Shown here: one piece after another, positions 29,701 to 60,650 of the stretch
Position numbering within the stretch: the stretch's first letter is position 1
How the letters are laid out: each line of letters opens with the position of its first letter
Assembly: GCA_029582265.1 (NCBI GenBank)
Contig: CM055821.1
Span: 42,847,694-42,911,693 of the forward strand
Direction: 5' to 3'
DNA from: Zoroaster sp. YZ-2022
Taxonomy: Eukaryota; Echinodermata; Asteroidea; Forcipulatida; Zoroasteridae
Length of the DNA: 64,000 bases
The notes under the pieces: generated by a model
The model's input: only the letters and a program-made list of their open reading frames with translations
Databases searched by the model: none
What the model was told of the DNA's origin: nothing
Program-made: the position numbers and the translations under genes

Positions 29701-29801
29701 TAAAATAAACCGCGTCGAAGGGAGAGCTAGAAGAAACTATAATCTCGTGATAAAAGAGTTGGTAAATAAAACAAGTCGTTTATAGTTTAAAAAAAAAGAA
29801 A

Positions 29802-30536: not shown

Positions 30537-30568
30537 TATTCTATTAATAATAAAAGATTAAAATTTTA

Positions 30569-31050: not shown

Positions 31051-31119
31051 ATTTATATAATATTTTTATTTTTATTTTATTACATTTTACCGTAAAACGC
31101 AACTGCTAAATTTCAAGAC

Positions 31120-31572
31120 TGGCACTTTTTATTTTTATATCGAAACAGATTCCCGTGTTTACAGCGCCGAAAAACTTTCCTCGTACAAAGACTTTTTTAT
31201 CTTCTGTTTTGTAGCAAATTTCGTATTCTAAATGCTACGATTCGTCGTTAAAAGAAAATTTATTATTTCGAGCGGGAGAAGAATATGAGCTACATCGGCT
31301 ACAAAATTGCGCGTTACCGAGTGCGAATAAAGACCATCGACCTTCATAAATTTTACAAAAATTGAACAGTATGTCGGTGCTTTATCGAATGTGAAAAAGG
31401 GTAGACTAAAGACACCATCCCACCCGAGTTTAATGCAAAGTTCTTCGAATAAATTTATTAAAGTTATCGTTTGTTGAATTTCACTCGGTTCGATGTATCC
31501 ATGACGTTCGTAAAATAGACGGATTGTAGTATTGTACATGCTTCTTCGACTAGTGCCGAAAATACTCGCCAT
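31120..31572 (-). pseudogene. Small paralogous Polinton protein (family A), copy R1
   Basis: It starts MASIFGTSRR and contains YIEPSEIQQTITLINLFEEL, with the conserved KVFVRGKFFGAVNTGICF end in another frame near 31200-31140. It is closest in arrangement to the copy at 58091-58564. At least one frameshift lies near 31240. Confidence 0.75.
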
Positions 31573-31639
31573 TTACAATTAGTTTTTTATTATTTAATTT
31601 CGACGGTTAAAATAACCGGCATACTGTGATTACTAGGCC

Positions 31640-42983: not shown

Positions 42984-43227
42984 CAATTAGGGAATTTCCC
43001 TAATTAAAAATTGGTATGAGAAATTTAGTAGGTATAGGGGTTGAGGTGATGAGTAGCTTAGCAATATGCTATGTTGATGACCGCTAGCTAACGCTGATGA
43101 AAAATTTGTAAAAAAAAAATTGTAAAAATTATGGGAAAAAAAATTGATGTATTGGAAAAAAGATATCGTTTTTTGTTACTAAAAAATTTAAAAAACGATT
43201 TAATATTCTGTAGGTGTATATTAAAAA
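42984..43227 (+). repeat. Polinton left terminal inverted repeat
   Basis: It aligns with the reverse complement of 60428-60650. Shared blocks include CCTAATTAAAAATTGGTATG, AGAAATTTAGTAGGTATAGG, GCTAGCTAACGCTGATGAAA, TTTTTTGTTACTAAAAAATT and AACGATTTAATATT. The left copy has about 18 extra bases near 43155. Confidence 0.95.
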
Positions 43228-43254
43228 TGAGGATGGAGAAAATGAAAAACTACG

Positions 43255-43667
43255 TTGGAAAAAAAATCTGAATTGAAAGAGTTTGTTTTAAAAAATAATA
43301 TTGAGATTGGTGAAGGATCTGGAAAAGGGGAAGAGCAAGACGACAAGATTATTTATGTGCGATTAGAAAATATTTAGAAAAGGAAAAAGTTGTTTTACCG
43401 TGTGAATGGCTATTAGTTGGAAGGAGTAAGTGTTGCCAAAAAGCTCTACGGGGTAATAAATACTGCAGCATGCATCGTATACAACAAGGTAAATCTATAC
43501 CAGCGGCGTGTAAAAAATGTGGAAGGGGAACAAAAACAGCAAGTGGTGTATGTATAAATTGTGAAGTAGAAGAAAGATTAGTAAAAAGATTAATAGAATC
43601 TGATAAAGAATATAATTTAGTGATGAAAGAGTTGCTAAGTTTATATAAATCTTACGATATAAATTAA
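43255..43667 (+). pseudogene. TIR-proximal HeH/SAP-like plus zinc-ribbon protein, frameshifted
   Basis: The upstream part reads LKEFVLKNNIEIGEGSGKG, a helix-extended-loop-helix (SAP-like) start. After a frame change it continues in frame through YLEKEKVVLPCEWLLVGRSK and a zinc-ribbon CKKCGRGTKTASGVCINCE to a stop at 43665-43667. Paralogues lie just inside the right terminus (60133-60427) and in the second element (29471-29700). DNA binding is plausible but unproven. Confidence 0.75.
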
Positions 43668-43804
43668 TGTGTAAGATGTAAAAGGGAATCAGAATAAACG
43701 TTTTAAAAAATGTGTAAAAAAAGAATTGAAAAAAATATGTTGGTTTTTGTCAATAAAAAATTGAAAAAACAATTTAATATTATATAGATGTATAGTAAAA
43801 GAGG

Positions 43805-43945
43805 ATGACGGAGAATAAATATTTATCAAAATGGAAGTTGACAGAATTGAAAGAATATGCCCGCGCAAATATTAGACCGTTAATTTTAGTGCAAGACCCA
43901 AAAGGAGAAATAAAATATCAAAACGGTCGTGGTACAATACGGTAA
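43805..43945 (+). CDS. Short SAP-like ORF
   Basis: A 46-residue frame starts MTENKYLSKWKLTELKEYAR. The ELKEYAR stretch resembles the first helix of SAP/HeH domains. It is probably the beginning of a longer gene cut by a stop; homologous YLSK starts occur in the neighbouring TIR-proximal genes. Confidence 0.5.
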   Translation: MTENKYLSKWKLTELKEYARANIRPLILVQDPKGEIKYQNGRGTIR

Positions 43946-43989
43946 AAAAATATCAAAACCGTATAAAAGAAAGACTATTGTCTATTGAG

Positions 43990-44240
43990 TGAATTAAACT
44001 TGGGCGAACTTGTAGAGTATGTAAGAAGAAATAATATTATTTTACCACGTATAGGTTCTGGTAAAAGAAGAATAGGAGGGCTTATTAAAATAGACTACAT
44101 TAACCCTAACTCCCTAAGCATTGTTACTGAACAATAAAAATCCTTCAAAATCCTCCAAAATCCTCCAACTGCTTTTGTTGTCTAGGGAGTTAGGGTTAAC
44201 GCGATAAAAAGATCGCGATTACATTCAGAAGAAGAGTTGA
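43990..44240 (+). pseudogene. HeH-like repeat unit 1, split by a MITE
   Basis: LGELVEYVRRNNIILPRIGS is followed by KIDYI, where the coding sequence is cut at TTAA by the insertion at 44104-44199, then resumes with ACGCGATAAAAAG. Two further units with the same motif at 46640-46720 and 46776-46910 keep the uninterrupted sequence. Confidence 0.75.
44104..44199. mobile_element. piggyBac-like MITE with TTAA target duplication
   Basis: The 92-bp insert begins CCCTAACTCCCTAAG and ends CTAGGGAGTTAGGG, an inverted repeat of about 13-14 bp, and is flanked by TTAA (44100-44103 and 44196-44199). The empty site, ACATTAACGCGATAAAAAG, is preserved in two paralogous copies at about 46682 and 46875. TTAA duplication with CCC-starting termini is typical of piggyBac-type elements. 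Confidence 0.93.
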
Positions 44241-44459
44241 GATTTGAAGAAGAATATAGAATAGATAGATTTAGAAAAAGATATAAAATACTTGAAATGA
44301 TTGTACCAGAGTTTCACAGCACAGAGGATGATGTAACTGTATTTTTGCAGCTGTAAAAACAAAAGTAATAGAAAATTTAATTTTAGGCATGCGAGAATTT
44401 AGAAAAATAAAGTTTCAGATAACCACAACTGTTTTTTTTTTTTTAAAGATGAACAAAAT

Positions 44460-46550
44460 GTGGGTAGGATTATTCGTATTTTTTCTGCTAATCACGTAAC
44501 TATGAATATAATAAATGAAGCTGAGATTGAAGAAAAAGTAAGACGCGTTTATGAAAAAATGGAAAATAAAGTAGAAACTGAATTACAGAAAGATTCAGGA
44601 TGGGAATTTCTTCGAGTTGCTGAAATGGAAATACAAATTTTAAAATACACTCCACTTCGAGGAGGGTCTTATATAAAGTTAGATCCATGGATAGAAAAGA
44701 AAAAAGCATGTATAAACATTGAAAACAAACACGATGAAGAATGTTTGAAATGGGCGATTATTTCAGCTCTCTATCCTCCTACCGATCCTAAAAAGAAAAC
44801 TCATCCTACAAGAATATCTAGCTATCCTACAGATCATGGTTTAAATTTTTAGTGGTATTGATTTTCCGACTCGTATTAATCAAATCAAACAAGTAGAGGA
44901 CCAAAACAATTTATCGATAGTTGTTTTAGGATATTATTCAGAAGAATATATACTAGAACCTCAGTATATTTGCGATAAACCAAGTGATACTCCTAGCATC
45001 GTAGACGGTAAAACAATAAAGGAAATTGATTTACTATTATTTCATAAAGGAAAAAAATCTCACTATGTTTGGAGAACAAATTTAAACCGTTTTTTATCCA
45101 GTCAAAACAAACACAACAGTGAAACATTTTTGCAGGAGATGTTTACACGGTTATTCATCTAAAAATTACTGGATGAACATAAAGAATTGGGTTGTGTAGT
45201 AGGTGGGAGTGAGAAACCATCGCAAAAGTTTATTATGCCTACTGAGGAAAAATACAACACCATTAAAACATTTATAAATTATAAAAACATGATAAAAGTT
45301 CCTTACGTTATACGCAGATTTTGAATCGATAGTTGAAAAGACGATCGAGGTGATAACTCTAAATACTGTTAAAAAACAGCTGAACACATTGGTTGCGGTT
45401 ATTCGTACATTATCATTCGATGTGACGGGAAAATAATGTCGCATAAGACATACAGAGGAAAAGATGTCGCCAAACACTTTTTAGATGCAGTGATTGAGGA
45501 AGGAGATAAGATCACTAAATTATTAGAAAACCCTAAAAAATTGTATATGACAAAATTGGATGAAAAACATTTTAAGAAGGCAAACGAGTGTTGTATATGT
45601 AAAAAAAAATTATTTTCACGAAGCTAGCGCTAAGCTGGTAAACGGCAAGCGGTGTTTTTGTTGGGTTTGTGAGAAAGATTCTAGGCATTATTGTGAAGAT
45701 GAAAATAAATGTAATTGGTGTACAAAAGTAGTAAAATTAAAAAATAATTATATAAAAGTTAGAGATCATTGTCACATAACTGGAAAATATAGAGGGCAGC
45801 TCATAGTATATGTAATTTACAATTGAGTATCGATCATAAAGTTCCAGTGTTTTTTCATAATTTAAAAGGCTATGATTCTCATCTCATTATGCAAGCTGCA
45901 GGACGAGTTGAAGGAAAGATAACATGTATCCCAGTTCTTTTCAGAACTAATTACTACTCAATTGAGATTCCACATGGTGTCACCGCAATTAGTCTTACTT
46001 ATCATCCTCACCATGCAAAGCTACAAGTTTTACCTATGTATTCCAGAAGACATGGAAAGTTATAAATCTTTTTCGATAGGAAAACTACGATTTTTAGACT
46101 CGATTCAATTTTTATTATCTTCACTCGATGAAATCGTTAAATCGAATGACATAAATTCTTTTCACAAAACTAAATTAGTGGAATCAGATCCAGAAAAATT
46201 AGAGTTACTTTTACAAAAGGGTGTTTATCCATGTTTATGAATACATGGATAGTTTTACCAAGTTTAATGAAACGAGTCTTCCTAAGCAAGAAGATTTTTA
46301 CAGTAAATGGATTGATAAACACATTACGAGAAAAGAGTACGAGCATGCAGAAAACGTTTGGAAAACATTCAAGTGTAAAACGATGGGAGATTATCATGAT
46401 TTGTACGTGAAAACGGATGTTTGTTTATTAGCCGACGTCTTTGAAGATTATCGCACTACTTGTTTTAAAGAGTACGGTTTGGATGCCGCTCACTATATTA
46501 CGGGCCCGAGTTTTAGTTGGGACGCTTTATTTAAACATTCAATAGAATAG
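44460..46550 (+). pseudogene. Polinton DNA polymerase B, N-terminal half only, broken
   Basis: Landmarks in order are SGWEFLRVAEMEIQILKYTP and KKACINIENKHDEECLKWAI (early region), VPYVIYADFESI across 45299-45329 (exonuclease I, with D and E), ECCICKKKLF, VRDHCHITGKYRG (zinc-associated motif), VPVFFHNLKGYDSHLIMQ (exonuclease II) and MGDYHDLYVKTDVCLLADVF (exonuclease III). It ends at 46550 after GPSFSWDALFKHS. The palm motifs (SLYP, YGDTDS-type) never appear, so the polymerase half is deleted. There are several frameshifts, and a 102-bp MITE interrupts the gene at 45935-46036. In intact Polintons this protein replicates the element. Confidence 0.95.
45935..46036. mobile_element. 102-bp MITE inside the polymerase gene
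   Basis: It is flanked by TGTATCCCAG (45925-45934) and TGTATTCCAG (46037-46046), a 10-bp direct repeat with one mismatch. The insert matches the host repeat at 9839-9942 at about 90% by eye. The polymerase reading frame runs into the insert and out again, masking it. Confidence 0.88.
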
Positions 46551-46554
46551 CTGA

Positions 46555-46960
46555 CGTAAAGCAAAGAAAAAGAAAAAGAGACAAGAAATTAAAACCAATA
46601 CCATTCAATTTAGATCAGCTTAGAGTATGTAATAAGAAATATTTTTTTACCGTTTAAAAGAAAGTATAGTAAAATAGATTACATTAACGCGATAAAAAGA
46701 GCGTATTATGAACAACAAAAACAAAAAGAAAAGAAAAAGATGTCAAGAAAATATTTTGCACGAGTTAATAAAACAAGATTGGGTGAACTTGTAGAGTATG
46801 TAAGAAGAAATAATATTATTTTACCAATTAACGGTTCTGGTAAAAGAAGAGGAGAGATTATTTATAAAAAAAAGAGGCTACATTAACGCGATAAAAAGAG
46901 CGTATTATGAAGAGTTGAGAGAATGGGAAATTCCACCAAAGATTATAGCTCTAGCTTAGC
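46555..46960 (+). pseudogene. HeH-like repeat units 2 and 3
   Basis: Two more copies of the motif seen at 43990 are present: a degraded one (YINAIKRAYYE near 46681-46712) and a better one, LGELVEYVRRNNIILPINGS, followed by YINAIKRAYYEELREWEIPP. They lie where the polymerase catalytic domain should be, so the deletion joined polymerase to this segment. Lysine-rich linkers (KEKEKE) surround them. Confidence 0.7.
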
Positions 46961-46987
46961 GGTACTCCTAGCGTCGTAGACGGTATG

Positions 46988-48399
46988 CTATTTTCTAATA
47001 GGAGGATTTTCCGTATTTGGCGGTACAATTTGTAATTCTTCTTTTACAAAACTACGCGCGGGACCTTTTTCTAAAAATATAAGAAAGGTTAATGAGGAGC
47101 TTTTATCGTTTCCTCGAATGGTATAAATGTTTATACTCCATATTGGATCGGTTGCGCGACGTCTCGTATCTTTTCGACTTCACCAGGTGCGTATAAATAT
47201 CTAACTAACGCGTTTAAAGCGATTCTTTTTCTTTTTTAGCTACAACGCTACGCCGCGAATGCGCTGGTGAGGCTTGATTTTGCTCAACGAGTTTTAGCTT
47301 AATCGCATCTTTAGGTTTTAAATTTATAAGTCTAGTCGTTTCGTTGTTTAATGCTTTTACTACCAACGGTAATCTTTTAACCCATACTCTTGATCGTTCA
47401 TCCGTTAACATTTCTTGACCGTATTGATGAGAAATCAATCTTTCGGCTAACGTTCTGTTAAATCGTTCTACAATACCTTGTGCTCTATGATGTCCAGCTT
47501 CGCTTCTTTGAACTATTACATTATGTTTACTCATTAATGTATTAACGCTCGCCATAAATTCTTTTCCTGGATCAACTTTAAAAATTTTAGGCCAATAATA
47601 ATAATAATAATAATGTGTGGATTTATATAGCGCACGTATCCACCAACTAAGTGGTGCTCAAGGCGCATTATATTATTATCCTTGCTCATAAGGCTCATAA
47701 GGCTCATAAATCATTCCTGAAACCATCTCAGCTCCCTGGGGAGTATACAGCTCCCTGGGGAGTATACAGCTCAATTGCTGCCATTTCTAGCGCATATAGA
47801 GCAAACCAACTCTGCCTTCACAGGTACCCATTTAACCCCTGGGTGGAGAGAAGCAATTATGATTAAGTGTCACGGCCGTGGTTCGAACCCACATTCTGTT
47901 GCTAACACCAGAACTTGAATCCGGTAAGCTAGACCGCTCGGCCACGACACTACACTATTTACCGTTAACAAAGAACGTTTATAATTTTTTTCAAACGCTA
48001 CACCAACTTGCGCCGCGGTTTTATCGATTAACGGTTCCGCTTCTTTATACCTACTCGCTTCATCAACGACGGTTAACGCGTACTTGTATTTTTAATATTT
48101 TTTTTTCCTTTTCCGATTGTATCGTGAGGAAGAAATAATAAATCTGCTTGATGAACCTCGTTTGGTTTTTCTTGACTCGAGTTTGAACTGGTCGGTCTAG
48201 GAATATATTTAGGATACGGTAAATACATTTGCCACAGTGCTTGCTTTTTTATCCAACTTGAAACTAATTTTTTTGAAATTTTAGTTTCTTGAGCTAATTT
48301 ATTAATCGCGGATAATCCTTTCCAATATCCTTTTGGACTATAATACACGTTAACTTGGACTATAATACATGTTAACTTTTGTCTCGTTTGTTTATCCAT
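46988..48399 (-). pseudogene. Polinton integrase (retroviral-type DDE), split by a SINE
   Basis: It starts MDKQTRQKLTCIIVQVN at 48399. The rve core has EVHQADLLFLP (first D), VDPGKEFMASVN (second D) and AQGIVERFNRTLAERL (E), a complete D,D-35-E set. The C-terminal part (VEKIRDV, WSINIYTIRGND, then FLEKGPARSFVKEELQIVPP) runs to a stop at 46988-46990. Frameshifts lie near 48075 and 47214, and a SINE occupies 47593-47955 between the first and second catalytic aspartates. Its role is insertion of the element into the host genome. Confidence 0.95.
47593..47955 (-). mobile_element. tRNA-derived SINE inserted in the integrase gene
   Basis: Minus-strand head: GTGTCGTGGCCGAGCGGTCT (A box) and GTGGGTTCGAACCACGG (B box), a Leu/Ser-like type II tRNA head. 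The body has a duplicated ACTCCCCAGGGAGCTG unit. The 3' end, TTGAGCACC, GGTGGATACGTGCGCTATA then (TTA)n, resembles the tail of the window's LINE (CTCAAGGCGC, TATCCACC). This suggests that the SINE borrows the LINE's machinery. Confidence 0.92.
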
Positions 48400-48421
48400 T
48401 TTTTTTAATTTATAAATATAA

Positions 48422-48667
48422 TTATTCTGTTAAATTCGTTGGCGGTGTAATTTTAGCCGGTAACCCCATTTTAACTAACCACGTTTCCGTCATTAGCGCT
48501 AACCCGACCGTTGTAGTCAGTTTTAGACCGTCTTTTATATCTAGTTTATCTAAATTGGGTGTATTTATATTACCACCCATACTATAAAGAACGGTTAAAA
48601 TTCCTATAACTGCGCCGTGATAAGCTGAATTGATAATTCCGTTCGTATCTATCATCGGTGAAGACAT
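48422..48667 (-). CDS. Small Polinton membrane protein
   Basis: An intact 81-residue frame starts MSSPMIDTNGIINSAYHGAV. A hydrophobic helix (AVIGILTVLYSMGG) is followed by a second moderately hydrophobic segment (TTTVGLALMTETWLV). A TATA-like ATTATAAAAT abuts the start codon. Proteins of this shape sit next to integrase and capsid genes in other animal Polintons. Function unknown; a virion membrane component is a guess. Confidence 0.65.
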   Translation of the reverse strand: MSSPMIDTNGIINSAYHGAVIGILTVLYSMGGNINTPNLDKLDIKDGLKLTTTVGLALMTETWLVKMGLPAKITPPTNLTE

Positions 48668-48711
48668 ATTTTATAATTTAATATTAAAATATTTTTTTAT
48701 TTTAAACATTT

Positions 48712-49132
48712 TTATTCCATTTCAAAAGCATCACTTTGCTCGGCGTAGGTTTCTTTTTCTATGCTACCTAGCATACCACTAGAAGGTATTAAAATTGGTG
48801 TTGGTTGCTCAAAAGTTTTTTTTCAGCCATTGTTTCTGAAGGTAGCGCATTTGCGGCGTAGCGCTGTTTATTTGAGTTTAAATAAATGTAATATATAATA
48901 CCTCCAACGGCTAAAGCCCCTAACGCGATGTAAAGATTTTTGCTAGTAAAAAGTCCAACACTAGCTGCTGACGCCGTGCTAGCTGACGCTGAGTTGACAA
49001 AATTCGTTTGATTTTCGTTCTTTTTAGCGCTAGCGAGTAATTGTTTTTTCTTTTTATTAAGTTCGGCGAGTCTTTTACCAGCTTTAACTCTATTTGGATT
49101 TTTGTACCGTTAATCGGTGTGTTTCGTGACAT
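48712..49132 (-). pseudogene. Polinton basic/alanine-rich protein with one TM helix, frameshifted
   Basis: It starts MSRNTPINGTK at 49132. After a one-base shift near 49090 the conserved reading gives GKRLAELNKKKKQLLASAKK, an Ala/Ser linker and the TM helix YIALGALAVGGIIYYIYL. A second shift near 48825 restores a tail that includes LIPSSGMLGSIEKE and ends at 48712. The basic patch followed by a membrane helix suggests a virion or membrane role; no family name is certain. Confidence 0.65.
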
Positions 49133-49751
49133 GATTTATCACTTTCGCTGATGGCGCTTTTGCTGATGGTGTTATTGTCGTCACCTCTTCCTCTGATTGC
49201 TGCTCCATTCTCTTTATTATCTAAACAAGATTCTTGTTTTTTCTTTAAATGTTTCCCAGTAATTAGTATCGCTACCATTGGTGCTAACATTATTCCAAAT
49301 TTATAGTATATTTCGCATAATATCTGAGAAAGAGCGCTCGAAATGATTGGATCTTTTTCTAAATCTGAAACTAATTCACCTTTGTCATCAATTTCAAAAT
49401 GATATCCCATTAAATCAATCGAGTTTAAACTTGATTCTAATGCGTTCGCATACAGAGTTAAAATGGAGCTACCTAATGAAGATATCATTTCATGTCCTAA
49501 TTTTGCTTCATATTGTGTGTATAATTTATCTTGCTCAACATTAGACAAAGCTTTAATGTCACAGACAGAATACTCTTTACCGAAATATTTTTTCGAGTTT
49601 CCTCCAGCAATGACAGCAAGAAGCCGATCCGTGTGATTTTTTTTTCTTCATTAGCTGTTATGCTAGGTAAGCTAGACGGGGAAATTTCATTAGCTGGCGC
49701 TATGCTAGGAGTTGTTGACTCTTCAATTAAAAATTTTTCAACTTCTTCCAT
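49090..49751 (-). pseudogene. Conserved Polinton protein of unknown function, frameshifted
   Basis: The N-terminal frame 49751-49630 (MEEVEKFLIEESTTPSIAPA) is acidic and proline/serine-rich. The main frame from about 49590 reads KEYSVCDIKALSNVEQDKLY, LGHEMISSLGSSILTLYANA and SALSQILCEIYYKFGIMLAP, ending in a helical membrane-like stretch (VAILITGKH) and a charged tail. Its end overlaps the start of the next gene (49132). Function unknown. Confidence 0.65.
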
Positions 49752-49803
49752 TATTATATAATACCTATTTTTTAATTTATAAATTTTATTTAAAAAATAT
49801 TTT

Positions 49804-49876
49804 ATACAAGTAACCTACAAGTAACCTACAAGTAACCTACAAGTAACCTACAAGTAACCTACAAGTAACCTACTCA
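49804..49876. repeat. 11-bp tandem repeat
   Basis: About six copies of ACAAGTAACCT lie in the spacer between the ATPase stop and the next gene's promoter region. They could be a slippage product; no function is apparent. Confidence 0.95.
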
Positions 49877-49882
49877 TGTATC

Positions 49883-50482
49883 TCATAATCGGTAGGTTGT
49901 TTTTAATAACGACTTACTATGTTTGACTCGTTTTAATTTTTCATTTACTTGCATTCTCAACTCTTTAGTCGGTATGACATCATTTTCTCGAAGACATAGC
50001 TCGAATGAGTCTCTATCTTTACAATAAAATATACACACCCACTTTAGTTGTTCTCTAAAGCTTTTCATTACGCTATTATATTTTTGCGAAAGAATCCAAC
50101 AGCTGTGGTTAACGTGTCTACCGCTAAAGGCTAATTGAGTAATCATACATTTATTTACGTCGTTGTATTTTTTATACTGCAATTCTTTTCTCGCGCTACA
50201 GTCATCGATGATAAACGTTTCATCACCTTTGAATACTTTGCTATAAATTTCTATCGCTTTATTTAATGATAAATTTTGTAAATCGTCAACGAGCACTCGC
50301 TCGTCATTCCAAATCCATTTTCTATTTCGATAAGTGAGATTTACCGCGAGGGTCGGGCATAATATAACGATGTATTCAAAATATTTATAATATTCTTTTT
50401 GCAATAGATTTAAAACAAATTCAGTTTTTCCGCATCCAGTTTGTCCACAAATTAAAGCGGCGCGCGGATATTTTGGCAACAT
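49883..50482 (-). CDS. Polinton genome-packaging ATPase (FtsK/HerA type), intact
   Basis: This 199-residue frame has no break. Walker A is ICGQTGCGKTEF (residues 11-22) and Walker B is ETFIIDDCSA (about 92-101). A sensor-like strand, LAFSGRHVNHSCWILSQKYN, follows. In Polintons and related DNA viruses this ATPase pumps the genome into the capsid. The start follows the capsid gene stop by only a few bases, implying joint expression. It is the best-preserved core gene here. Confidence 0.95.
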   Translation of the reverse strand: MLPKYPRAALICGQTGCGKTEFVLNLLQKEYYKYFEYIVILCPTLAVNLTYRNRKWIWNDERVLVDDLQNLSLNKAIEIYSKVFKGDETFIIDDCSARKELQYKKYNDVNKCMITQLAFSGRHVNHSCWILSQKYNSVMKSFREQLKWVCIFYCKDRDSFELCLRENDVIPTKELRMQVNEKLKRVKHSKSLLKTTYRL

Positions 50483-50490
50483 GGTTTTTA

Positions 50491-51759
50491 TTAATATACC
50501 ACAGAATCAAATCGTCCATTTTTGATATTGAGTTGCGCGTCCATAATAATAAAAGTGAACATGTATAATTCACCCGCGGATTCTACTTGTTTTTCTATTT
50601 GAATAGTAATTCCTTCGGATAAGTGTTGTACTTTTCTTCCACTTCCGTGTACAGAATTGTCATCGCTGCTTCTCATATCTAAAAACAATCCGTATTTATT
50701 GAGTAAATAATCAGCTTGTTTCATACTCGATAAACTTAAAGCTTTGGTAACTCGCATAGCGTGTTCTTTACTCGAATCTCCAAAATATTTTTGAATTTCT
50801 TCCCAGTGTTGATATCTACGCATCCCTTGCGCGTAGAGTTGATTGGGAACTCCTTCTACCGTGATAGAAACTTTATCGATTTTTGGACATCAAATTTCCA
50901 CGTTTCTTTTACGTCGGGCTCTTTGAATAAAAGTAATATTCCTTTCATGCTTCTCGCGGGAGTGTTTAGATTTATAGTCCACGTTGGATCTCTCTTGTTG
51001 TATTGTTGTACACTGTCTCAAAACTCTATCGTACAATATCACCAACTTGTTATTATATATATTGTTATCGTTTGAGTGAGTTCTGGTATATGAACGACTT
51101 CATATTCTAAAGAAATTCCGCTTATAATATATCTCGCATTATCGTCCGTGCTTTTAATTACTTTATTAAAAGCATTAAACTCGAGTTCATAACTCAACCT
51201 ATCTCCCATCCCCGATTGATAAAAGGTTGATGATCGGTTAATAATTCAAAATCGAGTGGAATGTAATATCTATTTTTAAACGCATCCGCGATTGCTTTAT
51301 CTTTTCCTCCGTTAGCGCTGGGAACAGCGTCGCTGGCTTCTACTCTTAATTTACTCACGTTCTCTCTTTCAATTCCTTGGTACGCTAGATTATCTCGTTG
51401 ATCTTTCGTTAACCACTCGTCTTTATAACAATTGAACACGTCCGCATCGTGTAAAGAAAACACTTCATTTCCCTCCATTTTAATAGTTATTTTTTTTACG
51501 ATAGCTCTCCCCAAATTATGTACGATCGTTCTTGTATCATCGCTGGAAGACTCGAGTTGAATATTGAAAGCTAATCTAACCGTACCCGGAACGATAACGT
51601 CGTGTCTTCCTAAATTTTGAAATTTAATCGACAACAATTGATTTTCTGTAATTGTGCTCGGGTTGTTTGTAATGACAACTTTTGTCGCGCTCCTTTAAAA
51701 CCAAAAGGTTCTCTTAACATTCTGTGTGGATTTAATACATCTCCGTAGGTGATTGGCAT
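50491..51759 (-). pseudogene. Polinton major capsid protein (double jelly roll), frameshifted
   Basis: The start, MPITYGDVLNPHRMLREPFG, is at 51759. The first jelly roll includes FQNLGRHDVIVPGTVRLAF, NLGRAIVKKITIKMEGNEVF and AFKNRYYIPLDFELL. After frame changes near 51700, 51195 and 51065-50885, the second jelly roll contains LVILYDRVLRQ, TINLNTPARSMKGILLLF and AQGMRRYQHWEEIQKYFGDS, ending VESAGELYMFTFIIMDAQL near 50491. Size (about 420 residues) and motif order fit the MCPs of invertebrate Polintons. It lies directly upstream of the ATPase. Confidence 0.93.
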
Positions 51760-51771
51760 ATTTTATACTAT
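51760..51771 (-). promoter_or_regulatory. TATA-like motif abutting the capsid start codon
   Basis: The minus strand reads TAGTATAAAAT directly before ATG. The same AT-rich pattern precedes most Polinton starts in the window (see findings). Promoter function is inferred from position and recurrence only. Confidence 0.5.
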
Positions 51772-51826
51772 AGACAATATTTTATTATTTAAAAAATATT
51801 TTATTTAGTCGAATAATAAATTAAAA

Positions 51827-52283
51827 ATGGTATCGACAGCGATGATGATAGGAGGTGCGGTTGTAAACGCGTTAGCATTTACTGGATCAAATTTTTATTT
51901 TCCAGTTTCCGTTCCAACGATGCTGAAAAAGAACGAAAGAGGCACGATTTAGCGCTAGAACAACTTACGAGAGCGAGAGACGAGTGGTAAAAAAAAACGA
52001 GAAAAATATCTAGACTATTTAAACGAACGCTTGCAAAAAGAATCGAAAGCTGTAAAAACTTTTAACGATATTGATGAAGCGATGAATGAATATTATAAAA
52101 TGTAACCGGAACTAATTTTGATTTACCAAACGATTTATACGACGAACCTAAACTAGAGGATTTTTATACTCCTAGCGAAGATCAAAAAACGAGAGAATTT
52201 ATATTCATTATTTTAGGTATGAGCGTAGTAGGCTTTGCCAGTTATAAATTATTTAAAAAAAGATTAAATGGCGTCATTGTAAA
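51827..52283 (+). pseudogene. Polinton membrane/coiled-coil protein, frameshifted
   Basis: It starts MVSTAMMIGGAVVNALAFTG, a hydrophobic N-terminus. Other frames then supply a charged coiled-coil-like stretch (DLALEQLTRARDEW near 51940-51990) and a C-terminal membrane helix, EFIFIILGMSVVGFASYKLF (52195-52254). At least three frame breaks. It is divergently transcribed from the capsid gene. Two membrane segments around a coiled coil suggest a virion or membrane protein. Confidence 0.65.
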
Positions 52284-52439
52284 ATGGCGGAAGGAGGATT
52301 CGAAATGGAAGATTTTCCACCGACGATGGAGCCAGAGAATCAAGAACAACTAGATATAAGTTTTTGTCACAACAAAAACAAGGTGTTCGGTTGAAGTTAA
52401 AATGGTTACGTCATCAATTCGAAGTGTTGGAGAAGTCAA

Positions 52440-53775
52440 ATGTTAACGTCTGTTGAAGTTCTCGCGAGAAGTTTATTTGAATACAATACAATTCTGAATT
52501 TAGAAATTATTTTAATATTCAACTTTGACTTCCGGTTTGGACAGGAAGTAAGGTCAAATTGGGGTCACCTTTGTGTAAATACTTTTGACAATTAACAATC
52601 TGTACAATGGTACAAAAATGTCAATTTACCTCCTGTGGTTGTTGAGATATGATTTTTTTTAAATATAAACTTTCACTTCCGGTTTGGACAGGAAGTAAGG
52701 TCAAATGGGGTATAAATATTTTTTGACAATTAACGATCTGTATAATGGTACAAAATTTGTGAATTTACCTCATGTGGTTGTTGAGATATGATTTTTGAAA
52801 ATATTAAACTTTGACTTCCGGTTTGGACAGGAAGTAAGGTCAAATTAGGTCACCTTTGTGTACATATTTTTCGACAATTAACAATCTGTATAATGGTTCA
52901 AAAATTGTGAATTTACCTCTTGTGGTTGTTGAGATATGATTTTTTTTAAATATTAAACTTTGACTTCCGGTTTGGACAGGAAGTAAGGTCAAATTAGGCT
53001 CACCTTTTTGTAAATATTTTTCGACAATTAACGATCTGTACAATGGTACAAAAATTGTGAATTTAGCTCTTGTGGTTGTTGAGATATGATTTTTTAAAAT
53101 GTTAAACTTTGACTTCCGGTTTGGACAGGAAGTAAGGTCAAATTGGGGTCACCTTTGTGTAAATATTTTTCGACAATTAACAATCTGTATAATGGTACAA
53201 AAATTTTGAATTTACCTCTTGTGGTTGTTGAGATATTATTTTTTGTAAATATTAAACTTTGACTTCCGGTTTGGACAGGAAGTAAGGTCAAATTGGGGTC
53301 ACCTTTTTGTAAATATTTTTTGACAATTAACGATCTGTACAATGGTACAAAAATTGTGAATTTACCTCTTGTGGTTGTTGAGATATGATTTTTTTTAAAT
53401 GTTAAACTTTGACTTCCGGTTTGGACAGGAAGTAAGGTCAAATTGGGGGTCATGTTTTTGTAAATATTTTTCGACAATTAACAATCTATACAATAGTGCA
53501 AAAAATGTCCATTTACCTGTTGTGGTTGTTGAGATATGATTTTTTTCAATATTAAACTTTGACTTCCGGTTTGGACAGGAAGTAAGGTCAAATCGGTCTG
53601 TACAATGGTACAAAAATTGTGAATTTACCTCTTGTGGTTGTTGAGATGGGTTTTTTTTAAATATTAAACTTTGACTTCCGGTTTGGATAGGAAGTAAGGC
53701 CAAATTGGGGTCATCTTTTGTAAATATCTTTTGACAATTAGCGATCTGTACAATGGTACAAAATTGGTGAATGCA
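52440..53775. repeat. Satellite array, ~130-150-bp unit, about nine copies
   Basis: Each unit contains TTGACTTCCGGTTTGGACAG then GAAGTAAGGTCAAATTGGGG, TTTTTCGACAATTAACAATC and TTGTGGTTGTTGAGATATGA. Units begin near 52525, 52672, 52808, 52963, 53107, 53260, 53408, 53555 and 53670. Two are shortened. Minus-strand open frames across it repeat PNLTLLPVQTGSQSL and are not genes. Confidence 0.95.
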
Positions 53776-54569
53776 GTAAATCACTAGTTAATGTTAATTT
53801 GTGCACAAACTGAAGATTTTTGGAGCCACAAAAATTACAAAATATGGCATAAAATTTCTTCTGAAAAATTGCCATAACCTTAACAACTGAATTTTCCTAT
53901 CCTTATTTATATTCTAAATACATTTTGGTGACATCTGTTCATATTTTGTTAGAAAACTGGAGTTGTTTACTGTCCAAAGTATGTTCACGTAGCCCCTACG
54001 TAGGCCTAACTAACGAGTAACGTTAAGTTAAACAGGTACAATGCAACGACGAACTCTGTAGTCCCTCTAAAGAAATGGCCTTTCTTCTATAAAAACACGA
54101 AGATAAATACAGGAAATCCTCTTAAAAATTAAATTCAAGATACCTACCCTTTATGACTGTATCTGTGTTGGCGATCCATTTGTACACGAAATACAGTAAC
54201 ACACTGTAACAAACAGTGCGCGTTGATTCGATTGTACATGGAGCTCCATTGTACCCAAAGATCGTTGGCAATCCATTTTCACACGAATTCCAAGACCTAA
54301 CACTAACAGCGTCGATTGTACATGGAGCTCCATTGTAACCAAAGATCGTGCAGCGCCGCGTATACATGTAGCTGCTTGATTCATGCAACGTAAGTGAAAC
54401 GTTTTAGCTAATATCTTTTGATTTATCGAAATTCGATATCTGATGACCTAATAATGACGTAACAAATTATGTTTCATCTACGTGTTATGTTCTAAGTATA
54501 TGCCAAGTTTCAAGTTCATATGAAGTTTGCAAGTATGTGTTTTTTTGTAGACAATCGATCCGGAAAAGA

Positions 54570-54628
54570 AGAAGAAGAAGAAGAAGAAGAAGAAGAAGGA
54601 GAAGAAAAAGAAAAAAAAAAAAAAAAAA
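54570..54628. repeat. GAA/A-rich microsatellite before the 3' hairpin
   Basis: (GAA)n is followed by a poly-A run immediately upstream of the terminal hairpin of the Helentron-like element. Confidence 0.9.
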
Positions 54629-55994
54629 CCGAACAATAACAATAGGTGTTTCGGGTGCATACCCGAACACCTAAAAAGCATTAGAAAATGAAATGTTTGA
54701 CGATATGTATCTCGACGATCAAGCTGAATTACAACAAAGGTTAAATAGATTAGTAGAAAAAGGTGGACCCGCATCGGAACCGCGGATAGACGTGCAAATA
54801 ACAAAACTATTGATTGAAAAATTAAGATTGAAATTAAAAAACGAGGGCTATTAATTAAAAGAATTACTCGAATACGAGCGGTTTCATCGATTAAAAGATG
54901 GTCTCTATTACGACAATGTCATGTTAACGCTTAAAAATAAACCAAATACTTTTGCCGCTACAAGTACGATAAAAACTAGAGCTGAAAAAGCTGGACACCC
55001 CGGCGTTGATTTTATTAGAAACCAGTTGGGTGTAATTAACCACGGTTTAAAAAAAGGAGGAATATCAAAAGAAATGCAAGAAAAAGCGGGCAAAGCATTA
55101 AAAAAGCTAGAAGCTCCGACGGTCGTTCTCGATAAAACACCTCTTCGTAGAGATATAACGCATGAGTTACCAACTACACAGCTACAAGAAGAGGATGGTA
55201 TTCAGCTAAGTGATGCGCAAGTAAATAATACAGTATCTACCGTTGAAGAATTTCTTGATGATCTCACCCAAGATGCATCAACTCGAGAGGAAATAAATTT
55301 GTATCGCGAAATAAGGGTTAACGCAGATCTTATGAAAACAATGCAAGGACACAAATTAAAATTTGAAGCTGAATTGTATGCATGAAACAAAGAATTAACG
55401 GCAGTTAGAGAAAGAATCGCTAAAAATGATATAGGAGATGAAAATGCAATGGAACAACTTGTACAACGAGAGCAAGAATTATTAGATGAAATATCTACGC
55501 TTAAAGAACAAATGTTCAAACTTGATTATGAGAATAGTAGCCAAATCAATAGAATAAAAGAAACGTTATATAGAATAAAAATATAGATGTAACGTTGGGC
55601 GAAAGAATTAAAACTTTATTTAGAGAACAAGGCGTAACGATTGTCAGTTTATTAACGGCCTTTAGTATAACCATCGCTTTTATAGTAGAATCAATCATAA
55701 ATGCTGTAAAACCTACACTACCACCCTCTCCACCCGCACCGCCTACACCGAGTAGCGGAGGCGTAAAAGAGTGGATACAAACAACTTTAAAAAATCTAAC
55801 GAATGTGCTAAAAAAAAATCGGAGAAAAAGCTTTAGCAGCTTTACCGGGGATAATAGGATCGATAGTAAGTTGGTTATTTACTACAATTTCAAAAGTAGT
55901 ATCATGGACGGCGGAACACGTGTGGCTTGCCTTAACCGGAGTAGGAGTTTTAATTTTAACCACTACAACGTTACCTCAACAACTCGTAAATAAC

Positions 55995-57316
55995 AATTAA
56001 GTCCTAATCCGGTAATAATCGCAAAACCGATAATTAATGCATTTTTTTCATCTTGGTGAGATGATGGAAGATTAGCTGGAACTATGCTATTATCTTCTTC
56101 ATCATCAATGCTCGTTAGTGGTTGTTTAGCTACTGTAGCTAAAGGTGCATCGTTAGCCCGTTGGTGTTGTACTAAGCTATCTAGCGCTACTGATGGTGCG
56201 TGTGTTGAATTTACATCTTGATTCAATCCTAGCTTAGCTAACGTTAAATCAGACGTTGCGATTAAAATATTATTGTTGTATCCCACGTATGTTCCAATTC
56301 GCATAGGCTATTCATATCGCTCGGTATCATGTATAATAAATCTCCAACGATAAAGTTCAATTGCGTCTTTATATCGGATAAAGAATCTTGATAGCGTTGA
56401 ATAGAATGTTGTAAATCTACCGGAGAGTCAATCTCAGCATCTAAAATGTTTAAAAATTGATGCTGCGCGTCTAAACCTGTTCCTGGCGTTAAAATGCCAC
56501 TTTTTGCTTGCACTTGAGCTCCTAATAACGCGTAAACGTACGTTCGTATAGAGTCATTAATTCGTTCTATTCCAACATCCGTAAAAGCTCGTTTGGTCTG
56601 AGGAGATTGCTCGATATAACCGATTGTAATATAATCTATGAAAGGCTTAAACTTTTGATCAGGAGAATCTTCAATGTCTTGGGAAAATTTCATAATCGGC
56701 GCATTTTTTATGATACACACCGTCGATAAAACGCGTAACATAGTTTTTACCTACTACGGGGTGCCACGCGTTATTTTTCCCAAGTATAAGCCGTACATAA
56801 ACCTCCCGAGTATTTGTCTAATCGTTGTTTCCAATTTGAATTTGGTAAAACGTGAAAATCATTACATAGTTTATTATACGCGCCAATGTCTATTGTTTGC
56901 AAATGCGTTCCAAAAATTTTGAAAAGATGCTGGACAGCTCATTTGTTTAAGTAATCGTCTCATTTGAAAATAAACGTGAAATTTAAAAAAAAACTTATTA
57001 TCGAGTTTGAATGAAACAAATATTTATAACTCACCCCACAACCCGCTGTACTACACCACGTTACAAAATTGATTTGATTTTGATGAAACTTTAACGGGCT
57101 ATAATTCCAATCATTTACGATTTCGTCGCTAGTCACGCGAGGTAACCTATATTTTTCAAAAAGATTATCGAGTTGTACATTAAAAAACTCTGTTTCATTA
57201 ACGTAAATATCTATAGTCGTTAAATCTCGAGAAGTAAAACTCGTTCTCGATGTAAAATTTCCAGATTGTAAATACCGTTTCGATAAATTACTCTGAAATG
57301 CTAATGGAAATGACAT
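55995..57316 (-). pseudogene. Conserved ~440-residue Polinton protein with C-terminal TM helix, frameshifted
   Basis: It starts MSFPLAFQSNLSKRYLQSGN at 57316. The first part runs to INFVTWCSTAGCG. After frame changes around 57010 and 56745 the next part is QTKRAFTDVGIERINDSIRT and YVYALLGAQVQAKSGILTPG (56741-56262). A further shift near 56300 leads to YNNNILIATSDLTLAKLGL, an acidic linker and the membrane segment NALIIGFAIITGLGL. These pieces occur in this order in other invertebrate Polintons, so they are treated as one gene. Role unknown; a minor virion protein is plausible. Confidence 0.75.
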
Positions 57317-57389
57317 TTTATTATATATTTTTATATAATTTTAATATAAAATATGCATCACACGATTAAAATTTAAAATTTAAATGATA

Positions 57390-58134
57390 CAATCTCATTA
57401 AATAATACGATCGATAATCGAAACGGTAAACTCAACATCTCTTTAAAAACCGTTCTCTTTTACGTCGGATAGGCCTACTATAACGTGCGTAAAAGAGAAA
57501 AAATATGGCTATGGAAAAGCTCCGTCAATGATCGCAATGAACAAAGTGCGGATGAAGAAATCATCTTTATCGAATCTGGACTTTATAACATCGATGAAAT
57601 TATTAACATTATCTTTAAAAAGGCACCTTGGATAACATTTGTTATCGATGAACATATCGGCAAAGCTATTTTAAATATTACGCAACAAGATATAGAATCA
57701 AATTTTCATCTGGATTAGCTAATTTACTCGGGTTTCCAGATGGTTATTTAGGTGGAGGAGAGCACGAAACAAAAAGATTTGATTTTCTTCCTTTTGAAAT
57801 AATATACATTCATTGCGATCAAATTTCTACGACCGAAAATTTTTATGACGGAAAACCATGTACTATTTTAAACGTTTTTCCATTACAAGATAAATCCTTG
57901 GGAGAAAGTATTTGGATGGAATATTCTAATCCATTAAAAAAACGATTACAAACCGGTACTTTTAACGCATTGAGTTTTCAAATTAAAGATTCATCAGGTA
58001 GAGACATAAATAATCGCGGTATGCCCATTTTTTTATCCATTGAAATTAGCTTTAAAAAAAAATATTTTATATATTTATATTATAAAAAATATGGCGAGTA
58101 TTTACGGCCCTACTCGCAAACAAACATCTTCTAA
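57390..58134 (+). pseudogene. Putative minor capsid/penton-like Polinton protein, frameshifted
   Basis: Pieces in order are NGKLNISLKTVLFYVG (57411-57467, ended by TAG), EIIFIESGLYNIDEIINIIF (57485-57718), LLGFPDGYLGGGEHETKRFD in another frame (57720-57800) and FNALSFQIKDSSGRDINNRG then IEISF (57898-58050). Beta-rich proteins with a GLY-x-ID-EIN motif and an RG-x-PI-x-L-x-IEI ending are the usual second structural protein in animal Polintons. I infer a minor capsid or spike-base role. The open frame overlaps the start of the next gene. Confidence 0.65.
58081..58093 (+). promoter_or_regulatory. TATA-like motif abutting a start codon
   Basis: TATTATAAAAAAT is followed at once by ATGG (58091). 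An equivalent motif, GTATATATTTAAATATGG, precedes the next paralogue at 58609. Confidence 0.5.
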
Positions 58135-58564
58135 AACCAAGTATAGCATAACACCAAACAATGTAAATAGCGTCGAATGCAATGGACGCATTAAACCGAG
58201 TGAACTTGATCAAATGATAACTTTAATAAAATTTAAAACGATTGAACTAGGATGGTGGGATTATACCAAACTTCCGTATTTTATGTTTGTGCAACCGCAA
58301 ACAGATTGCTCACTTTTTGTAAAATTGGTAAAAGTTGATGGTACTCTTACTCCCTATGCAGATACGCGTGATTTTCTATCCAGTATATATTATATTCCTT
58401 CTCCCGGTACAGAGGATAGTAGGTTTTTTTTTCTGATCAATACGATAGATATAGAATACAAAATTTGCTACGAAATGCAAGATAAAAAAGTATTCGTACA
58501 AGGAAAGTTTTTCGGTTCTCTAAATAAAGGAATATGTTACCATATAAAAATAACGAGTAGCTAA
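58091..58564 (+). CDS. Small paralogous Polinton protein (family A), copy 1
   Basis: An intact 157-residue frame from MASIYGPTRKQTSSKTKYSI to NKGICYHIKITSS. The middle has GRIKPSELDQMITLIKFKTI and LGWWDYTKLPYFMFVQPQTD. The end has KKVFVQGKFFGSLNKGICY. The open frame extends further upstream, but homologues all begin MASIxG, so this start is chosen. No known domain; beta-rich by eye. It is one of four relatives in the window, always near a Polinton end. Confidence 0.75.
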   Translation: MASIYGPTRKQTSSKTKYSITPNNVNSVECNGRIKPSELDQMITLIKFKTIELGWWDYTKLPYFMFVQPQTDCSLFVKLVKVDGTLTPYADTRDFLSSIYYIPSPGTEDSRFFFLINTIDIEYKICYEMQDKKVFVQGKFFGSLNKGICYHIKITSS

Positions 58565-58608
58565 AAATTTTTTTTTTTAATATTTAATTAAAGAGTATAT
58601 ATTTAAAT

Positions 58609-59106
58609 ATGGCAAGTATCTACGGACCTACTCGTAAACAGAGATCAACAGCTAAGCGAACTAACATATCCAATTTTTATATTTTTGAAGAAACTAATCA
58701 CATTGAACCGAGTGAACTTTTACGAAATATAAATTTATATTTTAACGAAGAACTAAACTTACGTATAACTTGGACTAGTAATTCAAATATGCTAGATCTT
58801 TTTGTTACAAGATTAGCATTTTATTCAGTATGTTCTAATTTCTAAATCAATTAAAGGTGAAAATAATTTAAATTCTTTCGTAAAAAACGATCGTAATGAT
58901 ATTTTAAGGGGTAATATTGACATCTCTAGTTATGATTTTTTTACTTTTTCAAATGAACCAACGTATATAGAATATGTATTGTACTACGTTTCAGCAAATA
59001 GACAAGATTTAAAAATCTTTGTACAAGCAACGTTGTTTTGCTCTCTAAACGATGGAATCTGTTACGATATAAAAATAAAATCTTTTCCAATTCACCATAG
59101 CACATA
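58609..59106 (+). pseudogene. Small paralogous Polinton protein (family A), copy 2, frameshifted
   Basis: It starts MASIYGPTRKQRSTAKRTNI and has NHIEPSELLRNINLYFNEEL. A frame change near 58840 moves the rest to another frame: FFTFSNEPTYIEYVLYYVSA and LFCSLNDGICYDIKIKSF, ending at TAA 59104-59106. Confidence 0.75.
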
Positions 59107-59154
59107 AAAAAAATGTTTAAAAAAAAATTATAATCTTTTTATATTAATAGAATC

Positions 59155-59706
59155 ATGACCTCCCCTATGGAAAAAGAAAACATTTATCCAACTTTACCAT
59201 CTATACCGCTCTATTCCGATGAAAAAGAACTCGCTAATGTCAATACCTTTCGATTAAATAAAATCGATGATGTCCAAACAATTCTACAAAAAGAAATAAA
59301 CGACCGCGAAAAAACATATAAAAAATATAATAAAATCATCAAAACTTGTTCCATCGTAGAAACAATGGCAGAAATAGGCTGTATGGGAGCAGGAGCAACT
59401 GGAATCGCTAGTATCGCTACCGTTGTTGCAGCGCCTGTAGGATTATTTTTTGAAGGTTTAGCTTTAGGATTAGGAAGTATGGCCATTGCGATTAGATACG
59501 CTAAATTTAAACTCAATAAAAAAGCAAAAAAACACAATGAGATTCGAGTTTTAGCTACTTCTAAACTCAACACCATCGAAAATCACGTTTCAAAAGCGAT
59601 CGAAGATGGTACTATAACTCAAGAAGAATTTCATTTAATCAATGAAGAGCGAGACAAAAATTCTCAAAATAATGAAAGAAAACATTCGAACAAAATTTAC
59701 ACCTAA
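59155..59706 (+). CDS. Hydrophobic Polinton protein (protein B), intact
   Basis: 183 residues. The N-terminal half is charged and coiled-coil-like (RLNKIDDVQTILQKEINDRE, with EKTYKKYNK). The centre is a glycine-rich hydrophobic stretch, GAGATGIASIATVVAAPVG and EGLALGLGSMAIAIRYA (residues about 79-118). The C-terminal helix pair is TSKLNTIENHVSKAIEDGTI then TQEEFHLINEERDK. Proteins with this layout recur in animal Polintons without an assigned job. The amphipathic core suggests membrane insertion, perhaps lysis or penetration, which is inference. Its homologue at 30148-30536 is broken. Confidence 0.75.
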   Translation: MTSPMEKENIYPTLPSIPLYSDEKELANVNTFRLNKIDDVQTILQKEINDREKTYKKYNKIIKTCSIVETMAEIGCMGAGATGIASIATVVAAPVGLFFEGLALGLGSMAIAIRYAKFKLNKKAKKHNEIRVLATSKLNTIENHVSKAIEDGTITQEEFHLINEERDKNSQNNERKHSNKIYT

Positions 59707-59883
59707 AATTTTCAATCCAAAAATGGATGACGCTAACATAGCGCTAGATAAAAAAAAAGACCTTATAGAAAAAAAATTGAATTTAAAGTAAACTTTAATA
59801 TAAATAAATCTTACGATAGCATAGCGCTACAAGCTAATATAAATCAGCGTGAAAGACCTCCGCCGTATTATGCAAAAAACTAA
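59672..59883 (+). pseudogene. Small basic protein ending in PPPY, frameshifted
   Basis: It starts MKENIRTKFTPK inside the end of protein B. A shift in the A-run at 59750-59757 moves the basic part (KKRPYRKKIEFKVNFN) to the next frame, which ends NQRERPPPYYAKN at 59881-59883. The PPPY motif and both ends match the gene at 29802-30026. Confidence 0.7.
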
Positions 59884-59994
59884 ATGTCATTTTTTATATA
59901 CTATATTTTAGCTTAGGCTTAAAATTTTGGGTTGATTAATTCTATAAAATAATCATTATAACGAAAACAATACTTTACAGATTTTTCTTATGCT

Positions 59995-60117
59995 TTATAA
60001 ATTTTCTTTTCCATCAATCATGTTTAGTTGTATTTCTTCTACATATTCCCATTCGCATTTATCGCATAGACCACAGATTTCGTTTAATGCCATTTTTTTA
60101 AATTGCATCTTACACAT
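59995..60117 (-). CDS. Short cysteine-bearing ORF
   Basis: A 40-residue frame starts MCKMQFKKMALNEICGLCDK and ends DGKENL. Two CxxC-like pairs (ICGLCDKC) suggest metal binding. It follows the right zinc-ribbon gene and may be its broken C-terminal part. Confidence 0.4.
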   Translation of the reverse strand: MCKMQFKKMALNEICGLCDKCEWEYVEEIQLNMIDGKENL

Positions 60118-60132
60118 TCTCTATTTTTAAAT

Positions 60133-60427
60133 CTATATAAATTTAACAACTCTTTCATCACTAAATTTTGTTGTTGTTGCTTTAACAAGTTTACTATGTT
60201 CTTTTTTTATTTCATTATTACATTTCGTACATAAATTTTTTAATGTTTTTGTTCCCCTTTTACATTTTAAACACTCAACGGATATTTCTTCCTTCCCGTA
60301 TACGATAGAAATGTAACGGACAAAATACAGTACCACATACACTTAGTCATTTACACTTTTCAGATTTTCCAACTAAAACCCATTCACATGGAGTATTTCT
60401 TTCAGATAAACTATTTATCTCCGCCAT
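60133..60427 (-). pseudogene. Right TIR-proximal zinc-ribbon protein, frameshifted
   Basis: It starts at ATG 60427 with CEWVLVGKSEKCK nearby (60390-60350), then a stop and shift. It continues as EISVECLKCKRGTKTLKNLC, with CTKCNNE, to 60133. It is the counterpart of the left gene at 43255-43667, so the pair forms an inverted gene duplication inside the inverted repeats. Confidence 0.75.
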
Positions 60428-60650
60428 ATTTATTATACACCTAGATAATATTAAATCGTTATTTAAATTTTTTAGTAACAAAAAACATCTATTTTTTTTC
60501 CATAATTTTTACAATTTTTTTTTACAAATGTTTCATCAGCGTTAGCTAGCGCTCATCAACATAGCATAGCGCTAAGCTACTCATCAACTCAACCCCTATA
60601 CCTACTAAATTTCTCATACCAATTTTTAATTAGGGAAATCCCCTAATTGG
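60428..60650 (-). repeat. Polinton right terminal inverted repeat
   Basis: This is the complement of 42984-43227. The outer end is CCAATTAGGGGATTTCCC on the minus strand against CAATTAGGGAATTTCCC at the left. Confidence 0.95.

What the first reader, a model, noticed from the sequence alone, without database searches (positions are those of the whole stretch)
42984..60650. Whole Maverick/Polinton with both termini, gene order readable despite decay
The inverted repeats, 17.7-kb span and PolB/integrase/ATPase/double-jelly-roll capsid set are seen directly. These genes define Polintons, which are eukaryotic virus-like transposons related to adintoviruses. At least ten further genes of recurring but unassigned families surround the core. 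The order is: zinc-ribbon, PolB (+); integrase, three small proteins, ATPase, capsid (-); two membrane/coiled-coil genes (+); one long gene (-); a capsid-like gene, paralogues, hydrophobic and PPPY genes (+); zinc-ribbon (-). An adenain-like protease is not seen.
Basis: partly seen in the sequence, partly recalled or inferred. Interest (0 to 1): 0.85.

Follow-up and report, generated by a model that had tools for sequence, protein, structure and literature searches.

The report
Decayed animal Polinton with gutted polymerase
This is the worn-out remains of a known kind of virus-like jumping element of animal genomes, still showing its matching ends, capsid and packaging genes but apparently without the copying half of its DNA polymerase; it is mostly ordinary, with a few unusual fast-changing genes at one end.

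The parts
42984..60649 (.). whole decayed element, outermost shared base to outermost shared base
   Evidence: TIR alignment; flanks read
42984..43229 (+). left terminal inverted repeat, outer part
   Evidence: 214 of 225 ungapped columns identical to 60425-60649; best of 200 shuffle pairs 43 against 341
60425..60649 (-). right terminal inverted repeat, outer part
   Evidence: as above
43314..43667 (+). left terminal zinc-ribbon-like gene, facing inward (Cys pairs by eye)
   Evidence: 43508-43681 is 70% identical to 60274-60103; relative at 29456-29680 E 9.9e-11; Pfam only Gp11_C 0.0028, below cut-off
60133..60508 (-). right terminal zinc-ribbon-like gene, facing inward, in two pieces
43944..44071 (+). 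small SAP-like gene module (name recalled), copy 1
   Evidence: 76% identical over 128 nt to 46723-46850
46723..46850 (+). same module, copy 2, lying just after PolB breaks off
44403..45162 (+). OTU-like N-terminal part of PolB in two pieces; Cys motif at 44736, His motif at 45061
   Evidence: motif scan, (expressions shaped on these pieces; the His expression also hit three other places); domain order TP-vOTU-EXO-PALM from PMC11071308
45296..46550 (+). PolB exonuclease part: Exo I 45314, Exo II 45859, Exo III 46404; no palm motifs found
   Evidence: motifs recalled; pieces
45932..46036 (.). MITE-like insertion inside PolB, flanked by atgtatccc / atgtattcc
   Evidence: 45925-46036 is 92% identical to 9829-9941; sequence
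46988..48429 (-). RVE integrase in pieces; catalytic D and E with D-x34-E spacing at 47576 and 47471
   Evidence: the C-terminal piece 46988-47179 is assigned by recall, the profile-matched piece starts at 47214
47594..47952 (.). SINE-like insertion splitting the integrase (by eye)
   Evidence: 47623-47670 matches 22526-22570 at 87.5%; ARAGORN finds no tRNA gene in the window
48422..49814 (-). three small proteins (48422-48670, 48789-49109, 49090-49814)
   Evidence: no Pfam family above its cut-off in four pieces
49883..50506 (-). A32-type DNA-packaging ATPase, open frame with Walker A
   Evidence: Pox_A32 1.8e-11; 849 relatives; Walker A at 50446
50491..51762 (-). double-jelly-roll major capsid protein in pieces; best piece 51194-51694
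51820..52456 (+). (+) coiled-coil/membrane gene pieces
   Evidence: one piece, 52099-52353, scanned with Pfam, no match
52510..53705 (.). 150-bp tandem array, not an element gene
54675..55586 (+). coiled-coil-like gene in three pieces (candidate capsid-surface helical protein, by look)
   Evidence: the piece 54855-55385 has no Pfam family above cut-off
55574..56000 (+). hydrophobic, proline-rich gene in two frames
55963..57340 (-). long (-) gene in pieces
   Evidence: no Pfam family above cut-off in the three pieces scanned
57473..58000 (+). capsid-like (candidate minor capsid) gene in two frames, not confirmed
   Evidence: no PDB sequence match of 57652-58000
58091..58564 (+). paralogue A, orphan family
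   Evidence: no relative found; second copy at 31572-31109; pN/pS 0.58
58603..59107 (+). paralogue B, broken in two frames
   Evidence: second copy 31050-30572; pN/pS 1.50, bootstrap 1.03-2.39
59155..59880 (+). most likely one gene: hydrophobic core plus PPPY tail, split here by a frame change; membrane-active capsid-core (Macc-like) candidate
   Evidence: main copy has hydrophobic segment and C-terminal core in one frame; sibling has C-terminal core and PPPY in one frame, 29802-30167; core pN/pS 0.34; Pfam only RTX 0.004, below cut-off
   Evidence: 29881-31510 vs 59816-58174, 71% over 1698 columns

Best explanation
A dead, endogenous copy of an animal Polinton/adintovirus-lineage element. Inferred life cycle of its ancestor: a linear double-stranded DNA with inverted ends, copied by a protein-primed PolB, packaged by the A32-type ATPase into a capsid of double-jelly-roll subunits, and inserted into chromosomes by the RVE integrase. 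The right-end gene with a hydrophobic core and a C-terminal PPPY most likely served the particle as a membrane-active internal protein, as adenovirus protein VI does; this is inferred from sequence features only. The copy then lost the PolB palm, took a MITE-like and a SINE-like insert, gained a 150-bp tandem array and collected frame breaks. Shown here: termini, ATPase, capsid, an integrase core, the inserts, a sibling right end, and the want of any palm motif or of room for a palm. Inferred: every step of the cycle, and the order of the damage.
For: TIR beyond chance. ATPase family. Capsid family and fold. Integrase. OTU and Exo I-III motifs collinear on one strand, matching the vOTU-EXO part of the published order TP-vOTU-EXO-PALM (PMC11071308, passages). 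Sibling right end with the same order. Hydrophobic core under purifying selection between the two copies, pN/pS 0.34.
Against: No TSD: 1 of 6 bases match at the outermost shared base, best of 20 shifts is 4 of 6 on a palindrome. No Pfam, NCBIfam or PHROG polymerase match to a PolB piece tried, and several motif expressions were shaped on the window's own pieces. No protease seen. The sibling shows no reported match to the outer TIR. The ends read CAATTAGGG, not the AG or AGT repeats of vertebrate Mavericks (PMC8097293, passages). The capsid model, of a relative and not of the window piece, has mean pLDDT 64, and a capsid profile found no capsid in the PDB by sequence.
Confidence: 0.9

Rival explanations
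1. A non-autonomous derivative: the palm was lost while the lineage was still moving, and palm-less copies were copied in trans by an intact relative.
For: The ATPase frame is open and close to relatives, while no palm is found and a repeat of the 5' SAP-like module sits just there.
Against: One copy only; PolB, integrase and capsid are all broken as well, which plain decay explains; no second palm-less copy could be sought (genome search did not complete).
Confidence: 0.12
2. A chimera: the two ends come from two insertions joined by ectopic recombination or by an assembly error.
For: No TSD; inner zinc-ribbon genes of the two ends are only 70% alike while the outer TIRs are 87% alike with gaps counted; a second element lies about 11 kb left of the first, in reverse orientation.
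Against: The outer TIRs match each other to the same last base on both sides; terminal gene conversion during replication would give the same contrast.
Confidence: 0.2
3. Not a Polinton but a captured cluster of NCLDV genes.
For: Capsid fold matches include p72 and PBCV-1 capsids, and the ATPase matches Pox_A32.
Against: TIRs, RVE integrase and small size; listed ATPase and capsid relatives at 48-71% identity, some ATPases named from bivalve genomes; the same fold list includes adenovirus hexon and mavirus.
Confidence: 0.02

Closest known systems
Animal Polintons/Mavericks and adintoviruses
   Same: TIRs, A32-type ATPase, DJR capsid, RVE integrase, OTU-like plus exonuclease PolB part (by motif); most vertebrate copies are also decayed (PMC8097293, passages).
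   Different: No palm found, no TSD, no protease seen; termini CAATTAGGG; here the ATPase lies beside the capsid on the integrase strand, whereas in vertebrate Mavericks it belongs to the PolB module.
Adenovirus protein VI / the hypothetical 'Macc' class (membrane-active capsid core)
   Same: Hydrophobic segment plus a PPxY-type motif in one protein (protein VI PPxY: PMC2841620, start of abstract in the listing; Macc: PMC11071296, passages).
   Different: No sequence relation was shown; here the one-protein reading bridges two copies; function untested.
Mavirus and other virophages
   Different: Mavirus PolB keeps the palm and lost most of the exonuclease (PMC11071308, passages), the reverse of this copy.

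Membership tests
Polinton/Maverick (adintovirus lineage), intact element | Terminal inverted repeats | tested here: met
Polinton/Maverick (adintovirus lineage), intact element | 6-bp target-site duplication | tested here: not met
   1 of 6 at the outermost shared base, at most 4 of 6 in 20 shifts
Polinton/Maverick (adintovirus lineage), intact element | Protein-primed PolB with OTU-like and exonuclease parts | tested here: inconclusive
   collinear motifs at 44736, 45061, 45314, 45859, 46404; motifs recalled or shaped on the pieces, and no polymerase profile matched
Polinton/Maverick (adintovirus lineage), intact element | PolB palm domain | tested here: not met
   no motif A, B or C (recalled expressions) in six frames of 42984-60649; 437 bp between PolB end and the recalled integrase C-terminus, 663 bp to the profile-matched integrase piece
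Polinton/Maverick (adintovirus lineage), intact element | RVE-type integrase | tested here: met
   PHROG transposase 3.2e-6, IS481-type 8.2e-6 below cut-off, D-x34-E; Pfam rve_3 only 0.058, rve 0.21
Polinton/Maverick (adintovirus lineage), intact element | A32-type packaging ATPase | tested here: met
Polinton/Maverick (adintovirus lineage), intact element | Double-jelly-roll major capsid protein | tested here: met
   fold from relative P0137, a partial protein aligned with the window piece
Polinton/Maverick (adintovirus lineage), intact element | Minor capsid (penton) protein | tested here: inconclusive
   57473-58000: no Pfam, no PDB sequence match, no model made
Polinton/Maverick (adintovirus lineage), intact element | Adenain/Ulp1-type protease | tested here: inconclusive
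   none in the 30 of 147 pieces scanned with Pfam
Adenovirus protein VI-like | Hydrophobic/amphipathic segment and PPxY in one protein | tested here: inconclusive
   hydrophobic segment and C-terminal core share a frame in the main copy (59155-59706), C-terminal core and PPPY in the sibling (29802-30167); no single frame holds all three
Adenovirus protein VI-like | Membrane disruption in entry | not testable with these tools
   -

The most novel reading that the evidence does not exclude
The orphan pair A/B at the right end is a host-facing capsid attachment, fast-evolving and swapped between element lineages as a module: B has a lower synonymous divergence between the two elements than its neighbours (pS 0.19 against 0.49 and 0.51; Fisher on rounded counts 5e-5 and 4e-6) but the same amino-acid-changing divergence as A, with pN/pS 1.50.
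Probability: 0.13. Interest if true: 0.5.

Novelty: new member of a known kind. Interest (0 to 1): 0.3.

Why it matters
It adds a decayed element of the Polinton/adintovirus lineage and shows two related elements in the same 64-kb stretch of a host genome. The pairing lets selection be read gene by gene: the hydrophobic gene was held by purifying selection while a neighbouring orphan gene shows no such sign. That gives a testable short list of genes with a likely particle role against genes with a possible host-facing role. Otherwise the find is ordinary.

Tried and rejected
Collections in which no relative was confirmed: viral contigs by protein or alignment and by a typed pattern, genome contigs, phage records. 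The listings warn that records near the window may be left out. PDB sequence searches gave no relative under 0.07 (best PFV integrase 0.074; the capsid profile's only match was a dUTPase at 0.096). Rfam at gathering scores and tRNA scans of the window: none. Structure of paralogue A: mean pLDDT 39.5, not used. The reading that hydrophobic and PPPY genes are two genes was rejected. A 'SAP-like' label for 43944-44071 is recalled; Pfam gave nothing above cut-off for the one copy scanned (46614-46886). The host was not identified.

Limits of the selection counts: six groups were computed; the B interval is marginal; Fisher non-synonymous against synonymous within B gives p = 0.08 (counts rounded, sites taken as independent); two of the three sibling pieces of the hydrophobic gene may overlap by a few codons; both copies are partly decayed, and decay alone pulls pN/pS towards 1.

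Limits of the motif scan: the OTU, Exo III and integrase expressions were shaped on window pieces already seen, so they locate motifs rather than test them; the palm and Exo I/II expressions are general ones from recall.

Full report
Termini. The outermost shared bases are 42984 and 60649. The outer inverted repeat covers 42984-43229 and 60649-60425: 246 alignment columns at 86.6% with gaps counted, 214 of 225 ungapped columns identical. Among 200 pairs of dinucleotide shuffles of the two ends the best local score was 43, mean 31, against 341. Further in, the ends carry a zinc-ribbon-like gene each, both facing inward, about 70% identical to each other over 182 columns. The flanking hexamers are ttgttt and gcgcag (1 of 6 equal); over 20 shifts of the end, the best is 4 of 6 on a palindromic AATT. 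So no target-site duplication is found. PMC8097293 (passages) gives 6-bp duplications and AG- or AGT-repeat ends for intact vertebrate Mavericks; neither is met here.

Integrase. Pieces between 46988 and 48429 (-); the piece 46988-47179 is placed by recall. Matches are weak but agree: PHROG transposase 3.2e-6, IS481-type 8.2e-6, below cut-off, Pfam rve_3 0.058 and rve 0.21, PFV integrase 0.074, and D and E 35 residues apart. By eye a SINE-like insert with tRNA-type boxes lies at about 47594-47952; 48 columns of it recur at 22526-22570.

Polymerase. In order on the + strand: an OTU-type Cys motif (44736) and His motif (45061), Exo I (45314), Exo II (45859), Exo III (46404). The motifs are recalled, and the OTU and Exo III expressions were shaped on the pieces themselves; the His expression also hits three other places. 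The order fits the vOTU-EXO part of TP-vOTU-EXO-PALM given for polintons in PMC11071308 (passages). No palm motif A, B or C appears in any of six frames. The reading pieces end at 46550; the integrase begins at 46988 by recall, at 47214 by profile; in this gap of 437 or 663 bp lies a second copy (46723-46850) of a small module found at 43944-44071, 76% identical. A MITE-like insert at about 45932-46036, bounded by atgtatccc and atgtattcc, recurs at 9829-9941 with 92% identity. Profile libraries matched no polymerase to the PolB pieces tried, so the assignment is by motif and order.

A sibling in the window. 29881-31510 aligns to 59816-58174 at 71% over 1698 columns. Piece by piece it carries, in reverse, the right-end order: zinc ribbon, hydrophobic/PPPY gene, paralogue B, paralogue A. 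It is broken too. In the main copy the hydrophobic segment and the C-terminal core lie in one frame (59155-59706); in the sibling the C-terminal core and PPPY lie in one frame (29802-30167). The sibling stops near 31600. No match of its end to the outer TIR of the main copy was reported.

Selection. Between the two copies pN/pS is 0.34 (0.25-0.45) for the hydrophobic core over 184 codons, 0.58 (0.44-0.79) for paralogue A over 134, 0.48 (0.32-0.72) for the zinc ribbon over 45, 1.34 (0.73-3.41) for the PPPY tail over 38, and 1.50 (1.03-2.39) for paralogue B over 128; A against B inside the main copy gives 0.61 (0.40-0.99) over 79. B's synonymous divergence is lower than that of A and of the hydrophobic core, which points to exchange or conversion rather than to one common age. 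The contrast of non-synonymous with synonymous sites within B is not significant by itself (p = 0.08). A had no relatives among 15 candidates in the protein collection; B was not searched there.

Mechanism and filing. The ancestor most likely lived as a Polinton/adintovirus: replication by protein priming, packaging by the ATPase, a DJR capsid, and integration by the RVE enzyme. The hydrophobic/PPPY gene is a candidate membrane-active capsid-core protein, the class called Macc in PMC11071296 (passages), by analogy with adenovirus protein VI, whose PPxY motif recruits a Nedd4 ubiquitin ligase (PMC2841620, start of abstract). This copy is taken to be inert: no palm, several genes broken. Because the palm and the target-site duplication were tested and not met, I file it as a decayed derivative of the lineage, not as an intact Polinton. 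Decayed copies are the usual state in vertebrates (PMC8097293, passages).

Noticed in passing
29400-31600: A second, partial element of the same lineage in reverse orientation, right end only; its outer end runs into a tract of gctaggtt-type repeats and a (TA)n run.
   Followed up: partly
60682-62031: A THAP-domain frame (3.1e-17) and a DDE_Tnp_4 frame (3.3e-32) follow the element; the THAP start codon lies 32 bp beyond the right end: a THAP/DDE transposon or a host gene from one.
   Followed up: partly
62997-63605: YqaJ-like viral recombinase domain on the - strand (1.6e-14).
   Followed up: no
9829-9941, 19984-20046, 20807-20885, 45925-46036: Copies or parts of one short MITE-like repeat.
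   Followed up: partly
43150-43229 and 43701-43799: The stretch upstream of the left zinc-ribbon gene is repeated upstream of the next gene (both pair with stretches inside 60425-60527): possibly a duplicated promoter module.
   Followed up: no
8306-13045: Frames that by recall resemble a D-glutamate cyclase gene of the host.
   Followed up: no
42985-43005: The outermost bases form a near-palindrome (AATTAGGGAATTTCCCTAATT); the right end has it with one base changed.
   Followed up: no
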